In this document: positions 14,495 to 56,211 of the stretch, piece by piece
Numbering within the stretch: the first letter of the stretch is position 1
Layout of the letters: the number at the start of each line of letters is the position of its first letter
From: an uncultured Kordia sp.
GTDB lineage: Bacteria > Bacteroidota > Bacteroidia > Flavobacteriales > Flavobacteriaceae
Direction of reading: 5' to 3'
Assembly: GCF_947489565.1 (NCBI RefSeq)
Contig: NZ_CANLEA010000023.1
Coordinates: 1-64,000 of the forward strand
Length of the DNA: 64,000 nucleotides
Notes under the pieces: generated by a model
Seen by the model: the letters and a program-made list of their open reading frames with translations, nothing else
Told to the model about the DNA's origin: nothing
The model's database searches: none
Position numbers and translations under genes: made by a program

Positions 14495-14692
14495 TTAACA
14501 TACTTCGATAATAGAAAAGATTGGTTCTGGGTCTGGATTATCAATTGGGTCTGGAGCAGGATTATTAATAGGAGGTAATATAGGACAAGCTCCACCTCCT
14601 AAAGTATTCAATCCTCCTTTGAGTGTGTGTTGGTTTAAATTAGAAATTGATTTTTTGTTCAGTTTTAGCGAATTAAGATGCATTTTCTTCAT
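14495..14692 (-). CDS. Class I lanthipeptide-like precursor, proline-rich core
   Basis: A 65-residue peptide with the Bacteroidota precursor leader LKLNKKSISNLNQHTLKGG (about residues 9-27): the LNKKSISNL box followed by a double glycine. The core begins LNTLGGGACPILPPI and is rich in Pro, Asn and Asp (NPAPDPIDNPDPEP), with one Cys at position 36 and a second as the very last residue. Leaders of this kind are recognised by modification and C39-peptidase export machinery encoded elsewhere; none is in the window. The core has few Ser/Thr, so ordinary lanthionine rings would be limited, and another modification or none is possible. It is bracketed by terminators at 14403 and 14756. Confidence 0.75.
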   Translation of the reverse strand: MKKMHLNSLKLNKKSISNLNQHTLKGGLNTLGGGACPILPPINNPAPDPIDNPDPEPIFSIIEVC

Positions 14693-14755
14693 GAATGATT
14701 TTGTTTTGTAGTTAATAATGATTCAAAAGAAGGAAGAAAATAGGGCACAAAAAAA

Positions 14756-14793
14756 GAATAGAATTGATGGTTTATGAACTATCAACTCTATTC
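14756..14793 (-). terminator. Terminator of the DEAD-box helicase gene
   Basis: On the minus strand, GAATAGAGTTGATAGTT and AACCATCAATTCTATTC pair with two wobbles around a 4-base loop and are followed by TTTTTTT. It lies 26 bases after the helicase stop codon. Confidence 0.75.
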
Positions 14794-31193: not shown

Positions 31194-31361
31194 TTACCTT
31201 GGTTCACAGTCACAAGTTTGATTGGCATAGGTATCAGATTCTTTATAGCATTCGATGTCGCACCAAGTTGTTGATGCCTTTCCTCCTACCAAAGTTTCTT
31301 CTCTAAGATTAGAAATTACTTTTTTTGTTAGTTCTAAATGTTTCACTTGTTTTTTCTTCAT
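31194..31361 (-). CDS. Class I lanthipeptide-like precursor, four cysteines
   Basis: A 55-residue peptide. The leader LELTKKVISNLREETLVGG (about residues 9-27) is the Bacteroidota class I lanthipeptide-type signature, with LTKKVISNL and a double glycine. The core KASTTWCDIECYKESDTYAN continues to QTCDCEPR and contains four Cys (34, 38, 50, 52) and several Ser/Thr, enough for lanthionine rings or disulphides. No LanB, LanC or transporter gene is nearby; precursors of this kind often act with machinery encoded elsewhere. Upstream sequence (minus strand TTCATAAACCA, about 80 bases before the ATG) is shared with the precursor at 14495. Confidence 0.78.
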   Translation of the reverse strand: MKKKQVKHLELTKKVISNLREETLVGGKASTTWCDIECYKESDTYANQTCDCEPR

Positions 31362-31504
31362 AATACTTTATTTTAAATTAATACTTGTATGAAGTTAGCT
31401 TAGAAAATACGCCCAAACAAGAACGTTTACCGTTGGTTTATGAATTAGAGGTTGTAAAAAAATGATTGTAAATTTGTTGCTTAGATACAACAGAAGATTG
31501 ACAA

Positions 31505-51957: not shown

Positions 51958-54867
51958 TTATTGCTTGATGATTTTTGGTTTTTCATAATTGAACAGATAA
52001 TCTACATCCATTTCTTTAATTTCTCCAAGTTTGGACAATGCTTCCATATCAACATCTTCTTTATTTCCAATAACCATGACATTGTATTGCTGTCCTTTTA
52101 TGTTTTGATCAAAGAACTTTTTTAAGTCTGCCAATGTCATTTTTTCAATGGCTTTGTACATTTTTTCAATATCATCGGCCTTGATTCCTTTTTCTTTGAA
52201 GTCTTCATGTGTCCAAAATATATTTGATTTTGTAATACGATCTGCCGCAATTTGTTTTAATGTAGCTTCTTTAGCCGCATTGAATTGCTCTTCCGCTTCA
52301 GGCATATTATTTAGCAATTCCATCATTGCATCTACCGCTTCCGGAAGTTTGTTAGCTTGCGTTCCAATAAATGCCATGATATAGTCTGATTTTTCTTTTT
52401 TGGAAGCATCTTCGTAATAGGAATATGCAGAATACGCCAATGATTTTGATTCTCTAATTTCCTGGAATACAATATCTCCAAAATAGGTATTGAATAAACT
52501 AGAAGCTGCCATATTTTCGATTTTTAACGGACTTCCTTTTGCTAAAAATAACATTTGCGCTTGTACCATGTCATAATCAACAAAGAATACAGAACCGCCT
52601 GTTTTTTGCTCTACATATGCTGTAGCTTCTGGATATTGCTTTAATTCACCTGCAACTTTATGATGTTGATTTAAAGCAGCAATCGCAGGACCTACATCTT
52701 TTCCATAATAGAAAATACGTTGCTCGTAATTTTTTAAATCTTTTACTAAATCGACCAGTTCCTGTGGATTCATGTCAAGCAACTCACTTCTGCTGTATAT
52801 ATTACGCAAACGAGAGTTTTCTCCATATTTTGCATAATTCATCAACCCTCTGTTTAAAATAGTTCCTTTACGAACTTTATTGTCTTGTCTTCGTTTCGTG
52901 ATTTGTGCCACATATTTATCATATGCTTCTTGATTTGGCACTGCGTTATTCCATAAATGTTCTAACAGCTCTAATCCTTTCGGTAAGTTTTCTTTTAATC
53001 CTTTTAAACCCACATATGATTTTTCTGCACCTGTTCTTACATAATAGCTAATTCCTAATTTGTAAAACTCTTTCTTTAGTTCTTCTGCGGTATACGTATC
53101 AGTTCCTAAATATCGCATATAACCAACTCCCAAACCAAGTTTCTTATTATGATCACTTCCCATATCAAAAATGATATCCAATTCAAATAAATCATTTTGT
53201 TCATTTTCAATAAAAGAAACCTTGATACCGTTGGTGAGTTGTGTTTGTTTAATTTGTGATTCTAAATCTGGAAATACTGGTTGTATTGCTTCAGATTCTT
53301 TTGCATTAAATGCTTGCAAAAACGCCGAACTTTTATCCGTATTTAGATTTACGGGTGTAATTCCTGGGTTTTCTACTTTTACGACGTTATCATCTGCTCC
53401 TTTTCGCTTATAGGTAACTACATAATTGTCTTTATAGAATCTGTTTGCAAAATCAACTAAATCTTGTTTTGTAATCTTTTCCAATTTGCCTAAGAATTCT
53501 ACTCTTTTCGACCAATCTTCATGATGAATAAACGCTTCATAATATGATTTTGCTAGTGCAGAACTACTTTCGAAATTTTCTATTTGATTCAGTTTCAAAT
53601 CATTTACTACAGCATCAATCATCCAATCATCAAATTCTCCTTTTTTCAATTTTTCAATTTGTGCTAAAATCAAGGATTTTACTTCATCCAAGGCTTGTCC
53701 TGCTTTTGGGAAACCGCGAAACATTTGATATCCATAATCATTCAGAAATGTTGTGGAACTTGTAGCATATTGTATTTGCTGTTGTTGATTTAGATGTAGA
53801 TCTATCAAACCAGCATTTCCGTTTGTCAAGACTTTATTGGCTAGTGTTAGTAAAATTTCATCTTCGGAATTGATTCCTCCAGAACGAAATCCGATAAAAA
53901 CATTCGCTGCCGTTGGCCCAAAAACTTCTCTTTCTATCGGCGCTGTGATTGGTTTTTCTTTTGGCAATGTAGGATGTGTTACCTCCTTTTTCTTCATTTT
54001 CCCAAAAGTATTGTTCACCTTTTCAATCGTTTTTTCAAAGTCCAAATCTCCTACTAAAACAATTGCCATATTATTTGGTACGTAATATTTATCAAAATAA
54101 TTATTAATATCTACTAGTGAAGGATTTTTAAGGTGTTCGGCAATTCCAATAGTACGTTGCTGTCCATACGGATGGCTTGGAAATAAAGCATCCATCAATG
54201 CGTAAAACCCTTTTCGGTAATCGTTATCTTGACTTCTATTGAACTCTTCAAATACAGCTTCTAATTCTGTATGAAATAAGCGCAGTACTAATTGCCCGAA
54301 ACGTTCGCTTTCTAAGTCTAACCATTTATCTAACTCGTTGGAAGGAATTTTACCTTTATAAATAGTTTCTTCAAACCACGTATGCGCGTTAGAACCTGTA
54401 GTTCCTAAGGAACTTGTCATTTTATCGTATTCATTCGCAATGCTATAATTAGACGCAACCAAAGAAACGCTGTCAATTTTTCTGTATAAGATTTTCTTTT
54501 TCTCAGGATCCGTTTCAGCTCTGTGCTGTTCGTATAAGGCTGAGATTTTTTCTAATTCCACTTTTTCTTTTTCCCAGTCAGATGTTCCAATCTCATCGGT
54601 TCCTTTAAACAACATATGTTCTAGGTAATGTGCTAAACCTGTAGATTCTTTAGGATCGTAATTAGAACCTGCACGTACTGCGATAAAGGTTTGTATTTTA
54701 GGTTCATCAGTATTTTTGCTTAAATAAACTTTTAAGCCATTTTCTAAAGTATACAATCGCAAACCTGTTGGATCGTTTGCTACAGTTTCATAGGAAAAAC
54801 TGCTATTTTTACAACCGAAAACTGCAAAAAGACAGGCAATTAACAGCAGAAGATTATTTTTTTTCAT
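51958..54867 (-). CDS. M16-family zinc metallopeptidase (two-unit), lipoprotein
   Basis: A 969-residue lipoprotein (lipobox VFGC, Cys 19) made of two M16 halves, like pitrilysin or insulin-degrading enzymes. The active N-terminal half has the inverted zinc motif GLAHYLEHMLFKGT (His 80, Glu 83, His 84); the third ligand is likely the Glu of the ELEAVFEEFNRSQDN region. The second half (about 520-950) lacks the motif and is structural, as usual. Features such as PFR-like DPKESTGLAH and GDLDFEKTIEKV fit the family. It cleaves short peptides in the periplasm. Monocistronic, with its terminator at 51901. Confidence 0.93.
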   Translation of the reverse strand: MKKNNLLLLIACLFAVFGCKNSSFSYETVANDPTGLRLYTLENGLKVYLSKNTDEPKIQTFIAVRAGSNYDPKESTGLAHYLEHMLFKGTDEIGTSDWEKEKVELEKISALYEQHRAETDPEKKKILYRKIDSVSLVASNYSIANEYDKMTSSLGTTGSNAHTWFEETIYKGKIPSNELDKWLDLESERFGQLVLRLFHTELEAVFEEFNRSQDNDYRKGFYALMDALFPSHPYGQQRTIGIAEHLKNPSLVDINNYFDKYYVPNNMAIVLVGDLDFEKTIEKVNNTFGKMKKKEVTHPTLPKEKPITAPIEREVFGPTAANVFIGFRSGGINSEDEILLTLANKVLTNGNAGLIDLHLNQQQQIQYATSSTTFLNDYGYQMFRGFPKAGQALDEVKSLILAQIEKLKKGEFDDWMIDAVVNDLKLNQIENFESSSALAKSYYEAFIHHEDWSKRVEFLGKLEKITKQDLVDFANRFYKDNYVVTYKRKGADDNVVKVENPGITPVNLNTDKSSAFLQAFNAKESEAIQPVFPDLESQIKQTQLTNGIKVSFIENEQNDLFELDIIFDMGSDHNKKLGLGVGYMRYLGTDTYTAEELKKEFYKLGISYYVRTGAEKSYVGLKGLKENLPKGLELLEHLWNNAVPNQEAYDKYVAQITKRRQDNKVRKGTILNRGLMNYAKYGENSRLRNIYSRSELLDMNPQELVDLVKDLKNYEQRIFYYGKDVGPAIAALNQHHKVAGELKQYPEATAYVEQKTGGSVFFVDYDMVQAQMLFLAKGSPLKIENMAASSLFNTYFGDIVFQEIRESKSLAYSAYSYYEDASKKEKSDYIMAFIGTQANKLPEAVDAMMELLNNMPEAEEQFNAAKEATLKQIAADRITKSNIFWTHEDFKEKGIKADDIEKMYKAIEKMTLADLKKFFDQNIKGQQYNVMVIGNKEDVDMEALSKLGEIKEMDVDYLFNYEKPKIIKQ

Positions 54868-55526
54868 TCTTTTAGATTAGTTAGTAGCATATATACACTT
54901 TACATTGATTTGTAATGTATGTATCGTATAGCAATATATTACATTTTTAAGAGGAAACCGCATTCTACAAAGCCAGATCAGGCATTTTCTATGAGTGCAT
55001 TTTTATGGAAGGAAATTTAATAGTTTTTAACTGATTTTATAAGAAGGAAAATTTATAAAACTAAAAAAAGTGAACCGAAGTTCACTTTTCCACTTTTTTT
55101 CATGATTGCTATGTTACTAGCAGTTTCCATTACCTGGAAATGAAATTGTCTAAAACTTTTTTTCATGGTAAATGTTCTAAACTTTTTCAATACTAAAACT
55201 ACACATCAAAAAGCAATTTTAAAAGAAATCATACTCCAGATTCATAAATCTTAAGCACTAAAAACAAGATCTAACATTCTTATTTTCAATTCATTAAATT
55301 TAAAAATATTGTATTTTCACTCTTTAATACTAGAATGGAAATATTTTATCAAAAAACAACCTTATAACATCATTTCCTCCTATTTTTTTCGTCTTTATAG
55401 TATTTCTATTTGATCATTTTATAGTGACCTATTTTAAAGAATTTAGGTTTACACTTAGTATTTAAGCTATAATTTTTCGGTTTTTATGAGATACCTTTAG
55501 ACATATTAATTATTAAAACCATTATT
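54868..55526. other. 659-base gap without a confirmed gene
   Basis: No reading frame with coding character is seen in this region. It holds the UUCG-loop terminator at 55066-55089 (minus strand), an A/T-rich stretch upstream of the peptide array, and a TACCTTTA box at 55492-55499 that matches TAnnTTTG at seven of eight positions and may promote the array. Near 55110-55165 (minus strand) lies a start ATGAAAAAAAGTTTTAG and a stub ending in FPGNGNC in another frame; it could be a decayed precursor gene, but I cannot confirm this. Confidence 0.5.
55066..55089 (-). terminator. UUCG-loop terminator on the minus strand
   Basis: The minus strand reads AAAAGTGAAC, TTCG, GTTCACTTTT then TTT: a perfect 10-base stem closed by the very stable C(UUCG)G tetraloop. 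No minus-strand gene precedes it within this gap, so it implies an unrecognised transcript. Confidence 0.75.
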
Positions 55527-55631
55527 ATGTTAGACAATTTTAAAAAGTATCAAGTCGAAAACCAAGAACAAATTACTGGAGGAAAAAATATAATTGTTGA
55601 TCCAGAATGTTTTAGAAATGAAGGGAATTAA
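55527..55631 (+). CDS. Double-glycine precursor peptide, copy 1
   Basis: A 34-residue peptide. The leader MLDNFKKYQVENQEQITGG (1-19) ends in a double glycine, the usual cut site of C39-peptidase exporters. The core KNIIVDPECFRNEGN has a single Cys in the word DPECF. It is the first of five related genes in direct order with short gaps, all sharing the leader. No exporter, modification enzyme or immunity gene is adjacent. It may be a bacteriocin-like or signalling peptide; the role is unknown. Confidence 0.8.
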   Translation: MLDNFKKYQVENQEQITGGKNIIVDPECFRNEGN

Positions 55632-55656
55632 ATTATAAGTCTTTAAAAAAATTATT

Positions 55657-55761
55657 ATGCTAGAAAATTTTAAAAAGTATCAAGTCGAAAACCAAGAACA
55701 AATTACTGGAGGAAAAAATATAATTGTTGATCCAGAATGTTTTAGAAATGAAGGGAATTAA
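55657..55761 (+). CDS. Double-glycine precursor peptide, copy 2 (chimera)
   Basis: A 34-residue peptide differing from copy 1 only at residue 3 (Glu for Asp); leader MLENFKKYQVENQEQITGG and core KNIIVDPECFRNEGN. Its start (ATGCTAGAAAATTTT) is that of copy 3, whereas its core and following gap are identical to those of copy 1. The copy spacing is exactly 130 bases on each side. This is the pattern left by unequal crossing-over between copies 1 and 3, so the duplication is recent. Confidence 0.85.
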   Translation: MLENFKKYQVENQEQITGGKNIIVDPECFRNEGN

Positions 55762-55786
55762 ATTATAAGTCTTTAAAAAAATTATT

Positions 55787-55888
55787 ATGCTAGAAAATTT
55801 TAAAAAGTATCAAGTCGAAAACCAAGAACAAATTACTGGAGGAGAAAATGAACCACATAATCCAGATTGTTTTGGAGAAACAAATTAG
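55787..55888 (+). CDS. Double-glycine precursor peptide, copy 3
   Basis: A 33-residue peptide with leader MLENFKKYQVENQEQITGG, the same as in copy 2, but a different core, ENEPHNPDCFGETN. The NPDCF word keeps the conserved Asn-Pro-acid-Cys-aromatic pattern and the His before it is shared with copies 4 and 5. The switch from shared leader to unshared core falls exactly at the double glycine. Confidence 0.8.
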   Translation: MLENFKKYQVENQEQITGGENEPHNPDCFGETN

Positions 55889-55913
55889 AATTAGTAATCA
55901 TAAAAAAATAAAT

Positions 55914-56012
55914 ATGTTAGAAAGTTTAGAGAAATACAAAATCGAAAATCAGGAAATTATTTCAGGAGGGAGACATCAAGCTCACAATCCAGAATGTTTT
56001 GAGAATCAATAA
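55914..56012 (+). CDS. Double-glycine precursor peptide, copy 4
   Basis: A 32-residue peptide with a more diverged leader, MLESLEKYKIENQEIISGG, and core RHQAHNPECFENQ. It shares HNPECF with its neighbours and has one Cys. It follows copy 3 by 25 bases. Confidence 0.8.
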   Translation: MLESLEKYKIENQEIISGGRHQAHNPECFENQ

Positions 56013-56042
56013 ATAAAATTATAAATCTTAAAAAATTGAAAT

Positions 56043-56138
56043 ATGTTAGAAAATTTAAAAAAATATCAAATCAAGAACTTAGATAGTGTTTCAGGAGGAA
56101 ACATACATGTTCATAATCCAGAATGTTATGATAATTAG
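56043..56138 (+). CDS. Double-glycine precursor peptide, copy 5
   Basis: A 31-residue peptide, the most diverged: leader MLENLKKYQIKNLDSVSGG and core NIHVHNPECYDN, with Tyr in place of Phe after the Cys. It is the last of the array and is followed 37 bases later by a strong terminator, so the five genes most likely form one transcript. Confidence 0.78.
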   Translation: MLENLKKYQIKNLDSVSGGNIHVHNPECYDN

Positions 56139-56175: not shown

Positions 56176-56211
56176 AAAAGCGCATTACCAATATATTGAT
56201 AATGCGCTTTT
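56176..56211. terminator. Terminator of the peptide array and of sucD
   Basis: AAAAGCGCATTA and TAATGCGCTTTT form a perfect 12-base stem about a 12-base loop, with T-rich flanks on both strands. It lies between the last peptide gene and the convergent sucD gene. Confidence 0.9.

What the first reader, a model, noticed from the sequence alone, without database searches (positions are those of the whole stretch)
55527..56138. Tandem array of five tiny double-glycine peptide genes with single-Cys cores
Five direct-order genes of 31-34 residues share a leader ending in GG and a core with the pattern (H/V)-(N/D)-P-(E/D)-C-(F/Y). Nothing else in the cores is conserved and each has just one Cys. No LanB/LanC, exporter or immunity gene is adjacent. 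They do not fit ordinary lanthipeptides, which need several Ser/Thr and Cys. They could be single-Cys signalling peptides, dimeric disulphide peptides or substrates of an unknown modification. The genes are too short for normal gene calling and are likely missed elsewhere.
Basis: partly seen in the sequence, partly recalled or inferred. Interest (0 to 1): 0.85.

Follow-up and report, generated by a model that had tools for sequence, protein, structure and literature searches.

The report
Kordia tiny secreted-peptide precursor gene array
A marine bacterium carries five tiny genes for short export-tagged peptides; they belong to a large family of such genes scattered through Kordia genomes, many of them with a switch-like DNA element in front, so they look like part of a coordinated set of secreted peptides of unknown use.

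Summary
Five ORFs (34, 34, 33, 32, 31 codons) lie in tandem between a peptidase gene and sucD, each with a double-glycine leader and a 12-15-residue core carrying one Cys in [HV][ND]P[ED]C[FY]. Units 1 and 2 are a recent duplication (128/130 identical). It is not an isolated oddity: the leader profile gives 75 matches in 10 of 11 Kordia genomes and a few in other Flavobacteriaceae; outside the array 58 of 60 cores read have no Cys. Four of five cores lack Ser/Thr, so those cannot carry lanthionine. The likely exporter acts in trans: a C39 transporter 95-100% identical in all 11 genomes, near a LanC gene. New here: many Kordia double-glycine genes, of this leader family and lanthipeptide-like, carry a palindrome at a fixed distance (53 bp) before the -7 box. 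Of 64 sites found by a promoter model and read, 54 precede a double-glycine peptide gene; of 20 found by a palindrome pattern, 16 do (two more with altered GG). The array's own promoter fits only loosely: a model built without it does not detect it. Function (signal or toxin) is inferred.

The parts
55428..55448 (+). Candidate operator CCTATTTTAAAGAATTTAGGT, imperfect palindrome, 99 bp before the first ATG
   Evidence: EM motif at -130..-55; similar element at the same distance in the syntenic Kordia G004 locus. Held-out support is weak: a weight matrix without it ranks it 4th of ~128,000 positions (minus-strand score 9.7; plus-strand 6.6), and held-out model R2 gives no match at E<=10.
55492..55499 (+). 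Candidate -7 promoter box TACCTTTA, 64 bp after the operator start (53 in most other members)
   Evidence: consensus TAnnTTTG recalled
55527..55631 (+). Precursor 1: MLDNFKKYQVENQEQITGG / KNIIVDPECFRNEGN
55657..55761 (+). Precursor 2: same core as precursor 1
55787..55888 (+). Precursor 3: leader DNA identical to precursor 2, different core ENEPHNPDCFGETN
55914..56012 (+). Precursor 4: MLESLEKYKIENQEIISGG / RHQAHNPECFENQ
56043..56138 (+). Precursor 5: MLENLKKYQIKNLDSVSGG / NIHVHNPECYDN
56176..56211 (.). Hairpin terminator, shared with sucD on the other strand
   Evidence: sequence
31194..31361 (-). Another precursor gene in the window: 55-aa lanthipeptide-like double-glycine peptide
   Evidence: found through its promoter (held-out model R2 E 5.9e-7); NF038153 below cut-off
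31430..31451 (-). Operator CCTCTAATTCATAAACCAACGG of that gene
14495..14692 (-). Another precursor gene in the window: 65-aa lanthipeptide-like double-glycine peptide
   Evidence: held-out model R2 E 4e-6; NF038153 below cut-off
14764..14785 (-). Operator TTGATAGTTCATAAACCATCAA of that gene

Best explanation
The array encodes five precursors of 12-15-residue secreted peptides. One transcript starts upstream of 55527 and ends at the hairpin 56176-56211. The MLExxxKYxxxNxxxIxGG leader docks on a C39 peptidase, is cut after Gly-Gly, and the core is exported; the best candidate exporter is the 735-aa C39 ABC transporter with HlyD-like partner near LanC/LanB on contig C2, which is 95-100% identical in all 11 Kordia genomes. 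The peptide leaves unmodified or with a Cys-based change other than lanthionine, and acts outside the cell as a signal or weapon between bacteria. The array is one unit of a scattered Kordia peptide repertoire, many units of which are switched by a dimeric regulator at a palindrome fixed relative to the promoter. Shown: genes, family, constraint on leaders, exporter genes, shared palindrome in many members. Inferred: transcription, cleavage, export, which exporter, regulator, and extracellular role; that this array itself is under the shared control is likely but not independently shown.
For: Leaders and repeated architecture. Genus-wide paralogues: 75 matches at E<0.01 in 10 of 11 genomes, 18 of them in this genome (counted by hand; two have a stop inside). 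Leader pN/pS 0.157/0.583 in the array. Core pN/pS 0.116/0.643 in the nine TATDDL genes and 0.143/0.726 in seven ATEYII genes, lower than their leaders (sets picked for alike cores, so biased down). A nearly identical single-Cys core in another genus: SSSQGAHCDAYG and SSSSGGHCDAYG. Leader residues -4 (I/V) and -12 (Y) suit the C39 groove described for Val-4, Leu-7, Leu-12 in PMC6363468 (passages). C39 transporter in all 11 genomes with a LanC match on the same contig within about 8-11 kb; LanC, LanB, transporter and HlyD-like gene read on own C2. Palindrome.
Against: No expression, cleavage or mass data. -7 is Gln in four of the five leaders, not the Leu of the model protease. The array's motif codons show no sign of constraint (3 synonymous against 15 non-synonymous differences, pN/pS about 0.94; too few sites to decide). 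In the syntenic G004 locus one gene is frame-shifted and the other has lost GG. The held-out promoter model misses this array, its G004 counterpart and its C18 paralogue. G007 has the transporter but none of the leader family.
Confidence: 0.72

Rival explanations
1. Substrates of an unknown RiPP enzyme acting in trans on the leader, for example at the conserved Cys.
For: Strictly conserved P-x-C within variable cores; LanB/LanC enzymes present elsewhere; dispersed precursors served by one enzyme are known for prochlorosins (PMC10783134, passages).
Against: Other core subfamilies share no obvious modifiable residue and 58 of 60 cores outside the array lack Cys; four of five array cores have no Ser/Thr; the leader lacks the LxLxKx5L motif reported for Bacteroidetes class I precursors (PMC7268733, passages).
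Confidence: 0.2
2. Bacteriocin-like toxins with immunity elsewhere, rather than signals.
For: Different cores behind identical leader DNA (precursors 2 and 3); variable content of the same intergenic site across the genus; promoter type shared between the leader family and lanthipeptide-like genes.
Against: No immunity gene adjacent; 12-15-residue cores with one Cys are unlike known class II bacteriocins (recalled).
Confidence: 0.35
3. Decaying remnant: a dying repeat array with no present function.
For: G004 counterpart broken; both C18 paralogue genes have lost GG; units 1 and 2 are a recent duplication; motif codons show no constraint.
Against: All five window genes are open with intact GG; leader pN/pS 0.27; the G004 record is a MAG, so an assembly error is possible.
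Confidence: 0.12

Closest known systems
Prochlorosin / synechococsin precursors (ProcA/SyncA)
   Same: Dozens of unlinked double-glycine precursors with conserved leader and variable core, singly or in tandem, function unknown (PMC10783134, passages)
   Different: Nif11 leaders, class II LanM-type enzyme; a shared fixed-spacing palindrome was not mentioned in the passages read
Bacteroidetes class I lanthipeptide precursors (NF038153, LxLxKx5L leader)
   Same: Double-glycine end, C39 partner often nearby (PMC7268733, passages), same genomes, same type of promoter element in Kordia
   Different: Different leader; no NCBIfam match for the array; array cores lack Ser/Thr in four of five
Double-glycine pheromones and class II bacteriocins of Gram-positive bacteria
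   Same: Short cores behind a C39-cut leader (recalled)
   Different: No adjacent exporter, sensor kinase or immunity gene; no family hit
Bacteroidetocins (PMC6671954, listing and start of abstract only)
   Same: Bacteroidetes secreted peptides
   Different: Described there as related to class IIa bacteriocins; no sequence comparison was run here

Membership tests
C39-processed double-glycine precursors | Leader ending in GG | tested here: met
   All five
C39-processed double-glycine precursors | Hydrophobic residues at -4, -7, -12 | tested here: inconclusive
   -4 I/V and -12 Y in all; -7 is Q in four, L in one (sequence)
C39-processed double-glycine precursors | C39 exporter in the genome | tested here: met
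   In all 11 Kordia genomes, not adjacent
C39-processed double-glycine precursors | Cleavage after GG | not testable with these tools
   needs biochemistry
Class I lanthipeptides | Leader family NF038153 / LxLxKx5L | tested here: not met
   No hit at E 10
Class I lanthipeptides | Ser/Thr and Cys pairs in the core | tested here: not met
   Four of five cores have no Ser/Thr; the fifth (precursor 3) has one Thr
Kordia palindrome-promoter set | Palindrome upstream, starting 53 bp before the -7 box | tested here: inconclusive
   Palindrome at -99 with spacing 64; held-out matrix ranks it 4th of ~128,000 positions, held-out model finds no match
Prochlorosin-type system | One promiscuous LanM modifying all precursors | not tested
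   LanM was not searched as such; LanB/LanC found instead

The most novel reading that the evidence does not exclude
Kordia runs a genome-wide repertoire of dozens of unlinked secreted peptides, unmodified and lanthipeptide-like alike, exported by shared transporters and switched through several classes of palindromic operators at one fixed promoter position; each operator class answers to its own member of a regulator family, possibly sensing its own peptides, giving many parallel communication channels in one cell.
Probability: 0.2. Interest if true: 0.88.

Novelty: new variant of a known kind. Interest (0 to 1): 0.68.

Why it matters
It turns a five-gene oddity into a testable system: a peptide family without a match in the two family libraries tried, in an algicidal marine genus whose secondary metabolites are called almost unknown (PMC10734526, passages). 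The fixed-position palindrome is a practical handle: it led to two more precursor genes in this window and to many elsewhere, and should allow the regulator to be fished out. If the regulator and inducing conditions are found, the function of dispersed peptide repertoires, an open question for prochlorosins too, becomes directly testable.

Tried and rejected
Rejected: lanthipeptide membership (no Ser/Thr in four of five cores); AgrD-like thiolactone (tail after Cys varies from 3 to 6 residues; idea recalled, AgrB not searched); the single Cys as family trait. First motif runs led elsewhere: one search found the AT-rich stretch just before ATG, other upstream similarity. A selection test mended: one search anchored cores on exact strings (TATDDL, ATEYII) and left out one and two genes, which makes pN too low; one search repeats it on 9 and 7 genes without anchors (and on 11 with the TTVEYII genes: core pN 0.232, pS 0.606, hardly lower than the leader ratio). 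Expected control that failed: the 20 matches read were picked because the model matched only from position 22 or later, as sites without an operator; 17 of 20 also precede double-glycine genes and most carry another palindrome class, so they are no control. Looked for the regulator: no regulator gene was seen behind the sites read; the TPR/AraC-type gene beside LanB is only a neighbour. R1 over the C39/LanB regions gave no convincing site (best E 0.044). Outside Kordia: 1 of 148 other Flavobacteriaceae genomes matched at 1e-4, before a 133-aa ORF that is no double-glycine peptide (strict filters, 27 candidates per genome scored, so a lower bound); 11 non-Kordia loci (7 genomes) with the leader family gave nothing better than E 0.13. 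Literature: six searches listed nothing on this leader family or the palindrome, judged from titles and abstract starts; most subscription papers are not in that library. Twelve passages of the Kordia genome paper PMC7477175 held nothing on it.

Full report
What is there. Five small ORFs of 34, 34, 33, 32 and 31 codons lie in one direction at 55527-56138, between an M16-like peptidase gene (51958-54867, minus) and sucD (56232 to about 57104, minus; both names by resemblance, recalled). The leaders align without gaps and end in GG at positions 18-19; all cores fit [HV][ND]P[ED]C[FY] with one Cys. Units 1 and 2 are identical at 128 of 130 positions; other pairs are 61-80% identical. Precursors 2 and 3 have identical leader DNA over 57 bases yet different cores, so leader and core have evolved separately. 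A hairpin at 56176-56211 (-16.3 kcal/mol, z -5.3, none of 200 shuffles as stable) closes the array and also lies behind sucD. No member matches any Pfam or NCBIfam model even at E 10.

Where it comes from. The host genome is 6.42 Mb in 100 contigs. A relative that genome-search runs same-genus (G004) has a contig of 276,732 bases that agrees in length and in the place of the match with the named record Kordia sp. isolate ALOHA_ZT_18, so the genus is Kordia; the species is not known.

A family, not an oddity. A profile of 24 leaders (A3; 21 as read, 3 altered by hand) matches 75 places at E below 0.01 in 10 of 11 Kordia genomes, 18 in this one including the five; two have a stop inside; G007 has none (my count). 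They lie singly or in tandem. Reading 58 fetched loci and the window gave 77 ORFs at E 1 or better, 71 of them at 17 bits or more; of these 71, 65 have GG after the leader and 7 of the 65 a Cys in the core, five being the array. Cores fall into subfamilies such as TATDDL(W/A)KWR, (G)ATEYIILL, SIIEExGGI, NKAKMADKAMNAMTQYISS and HNPECF. In 397 Flavobacteriaceae genomes 10 matched at 1e-4, three of them Kordia, the other seven from six genera (at most 22 candidates per genome were scored, so a lower bound). One core, S-S-S-x-G-x-HCDAYG with a single Cys, is nearly the same in Kordia G005 and in another genus.

Selection. Summed over pairs of four array genes, leaders give pN 0.157 against pS 0.583; the six motif codons give pN 0.165 and pS 0.176 on only 3 synonymous differences, which shows no constraint and is too little to decide. 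In other subfamilies, aligned whole without anchors: TATDDL, nine genes, core pN 0.116, pS 0.643 (ratio 0.18; leader 0.44); ATEYII, seven genes, core 0.143, 0.726 (0.20; leader 0.44); with the four TTVEYII genes added, 0.232, 0.606 (0.38; leader 0.45). The sets were picked for alike cores, which lowers pN, and pairs are not independent; the high pS still says that alike cores are old and kept.

The site in relatives. Of 11 genomes, 2 (this one and G004) carry the array in the gap behind sucD, 5 (G008, G006, G002, G010, G005) carry instead an 82-84-residue Cys-rich double-glycine peptide on the sucD strand, and 4 carry neither by this scan of ATG-started ORFs. G004 has two genes: one frame-shifted, one with GG changed to GE; the record is a MAG. 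The gap is thus a turnover site for such genes.

Export. C39 peptidase domains occur in all 11 genomes. In this genome there are four matches: a 735-aa transporter on C2 with an HlyD-like gene beside it and LanC, LanB and a LanB C-terminal partner nearby; a transporter on C5 in a gene cluster with a nitrile-hydratase-like leader peptide (name recalled); a 186-aa stand-alone C39 protein on C1; and a weak one on C16. The C2 transporter is 95-100% identical over its whole length in all 11 genomes, including G007 which lacks the leader family, and in each a LanC match lies on the same contig within about 8-11 kb (LanB was read only here). A LanB/LanC cluster in Kordia algicida was noted in PMC3091789 (passages). 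[quoted passage not shown] here -4 is I or V, -12 is Y, -7 is Q in four and L in one. Assignment of the C2 transporter to the array is inference.

The palindrome. An EM search of -130 to -55 before 55 leader-family genes with no family gene within 330 bases upstream found a 21-bp motif (log likelihood 149.5; eight Markov shuffles, run with half as many starts, 65.8-74.3). 19 of the 55 score above 11 bits and the rest below 0; 14 of the 19 start 89-92 bp before the ATG used. So it is not universal. Scanning 788 kb of held loci with it showed the same element 88-91 bp before five other small peptide genes, four lanthipeptide-like with GG and one ending in IIGA. In 21 aligned promoters other than the array type, a TAnnTTTR-like box starting exactly 53 bp after the element start was among the three printed candidates in 18; the array, its C18 paralogue and the G004 counterpart show 64, about one helical turn more.

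Reading of further sites. A sequence-only model of 24 upstream regions (R1) was run over the 11 genomes (about 150 matches listed, more not listed; 150 candidates scored per genome). I read 64 non-training sites: 21 (20 precede a double-glycine ORF; L200 no ORF), 23 further (17; L229 has a lanthipeptide-like leader without GG; L217, L222, L226 precede larger genes; L220 and L227 none), 20 (17; L241, L248, L254 not). Total 54 of 64. In nine of these sites the ATG lies 130-138 bp rather than about 90 bp downstream. The three larger proteins are a C-type-lectin-like, a MAM-domain and an M4 metallopeptidase protein. Sites were chosen among the better matches reaching into the palindrome, those among matches not reaching it; this is not a random sample. 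As a rough baseline, three precursor units stand among some 50 genes in this window. Some precursors with the palindrome sit within a few kb of further LanC genes (G006 C160, G008 C15, G009 1.59 Mb, own C27).

Pattern alone. A 22-bp palindrome pattern with one mismatch allowed, without promoter or start codon, gave 21 places in 10 of 11 genomes; the reversed control gave 1. Of 20 places read (17, three), 16 have a double-glycine lanthipeptide-like ORF about 87-93 bp downstream of the palindrome start, two more (L279, L280) a lanthipeptide-like leader with AGA or GKG in place of GG, and the two in G001 nothing of the kind. Seven of the 20 were known before the pattern was written; of the 13 others 9 have GG, 2 the altered form, 2 nothing. 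One place (own C36:26594) was not read.

Palindromic nature. Over 59 sites outside training (57 before double-glycine ORFs, L229 with a GG-less leader, L200 without ORF; the double-glycine site L256 was left out), the best palindrome averages 7.46 of 11 pairs, against 5.64 in shuffles and 5.59 at 100 bp further upstream; the centre is at one position in 38 and within one base of it in 55, the box being sought within 3 bases of its expected place. By simple patterns 21 are AAAT..ATTT, 12 AATTC..GAAT, 20 TTYATRAA and 6 other. Varying arms at a fixed place suggest related dimeric regulators; which ones is unknown.

How far this reaches the array. The array's element (55428-55448) was in the training set of R1. 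Held out, a weight matrix of 28 other elements of the first class scores it 6.6 on the plus strand and 9.7 on the minus strand, 4th of some 128,000 positions in the window, while held-out model R2 finds no match at E 10 there, and none at its G004 and C18 relatives. The same held-out model finds the two other precursor genes in the window at 5.9e-7 and 4e-6. So the leader family and the palindrome set overlap for certain; the array's own place under that control is likely, not shown.

Verdict. Real genes, very probably double-glycine secreted-peptide precursors, one unit of a large Kordia repertoire; not lanthipeptides. Family and promoter architecture did not turn up in the six literature searches made. 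Function stays inferred: secreted signal or weapon.

Noticed in passing
window 31194-31451 (-): 55-aa lanthipeptide-like double-glycine precursor with a class TTYATRAA palindrome in front; found through the promoter model.
   Followed up: partly
window 14495-14785 (-): 65-aa lanthipeptide-like double-glycine precursor with palindrome TTGATAGTTCATAAACCATCAA; near-identical cores (ACPILPPI(N/D)NPAPDP) recur in other Kordia genomes (L273, L281, L274).
   Followed up: partly
L065, L066, L067, L069, L070 (gap behind sucD): Five Kordia genomes hold a Cys-rich 82-84-aa double-glycine peptide in the same gap, on the opposite strand to the array: a turnover site.
   Followed up: partly
L045, L055, L107, L114, L120: ATEYIIL-type genes lie near genes with NKAK..(A)DK..MTQYISS cores in five genomes, as if a two-peptide unit.
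   Followed up: no
L226 1249-4563, L222 1155-2672, L217 1302-2438: Secreted M4 metallopeptidase, MAM-domain and C-type-lectin-like proteins behind palindrome-type promoters: possible non-peptide members of the same control set.
   Followed up: partly
L141 9256-9816: Stand-alone 186-aa C39 peptidase without transporter domains; C39 matches in similar-sized frames (194-212) in 6 of 11 Kordia genomes, one with a stop inside.
   Followed up: no
G005 C1:570278, G009 721777 and 1815987, G010 C4:22949, G003 2728424, G004 C1:276578, G001 C2:612071: A second, more diverged C39 transporter (47-58% identical to the C2 type) in 6 of 11 Kordia genomes, not in the window's genome at that cut-off.
   Followed up: no
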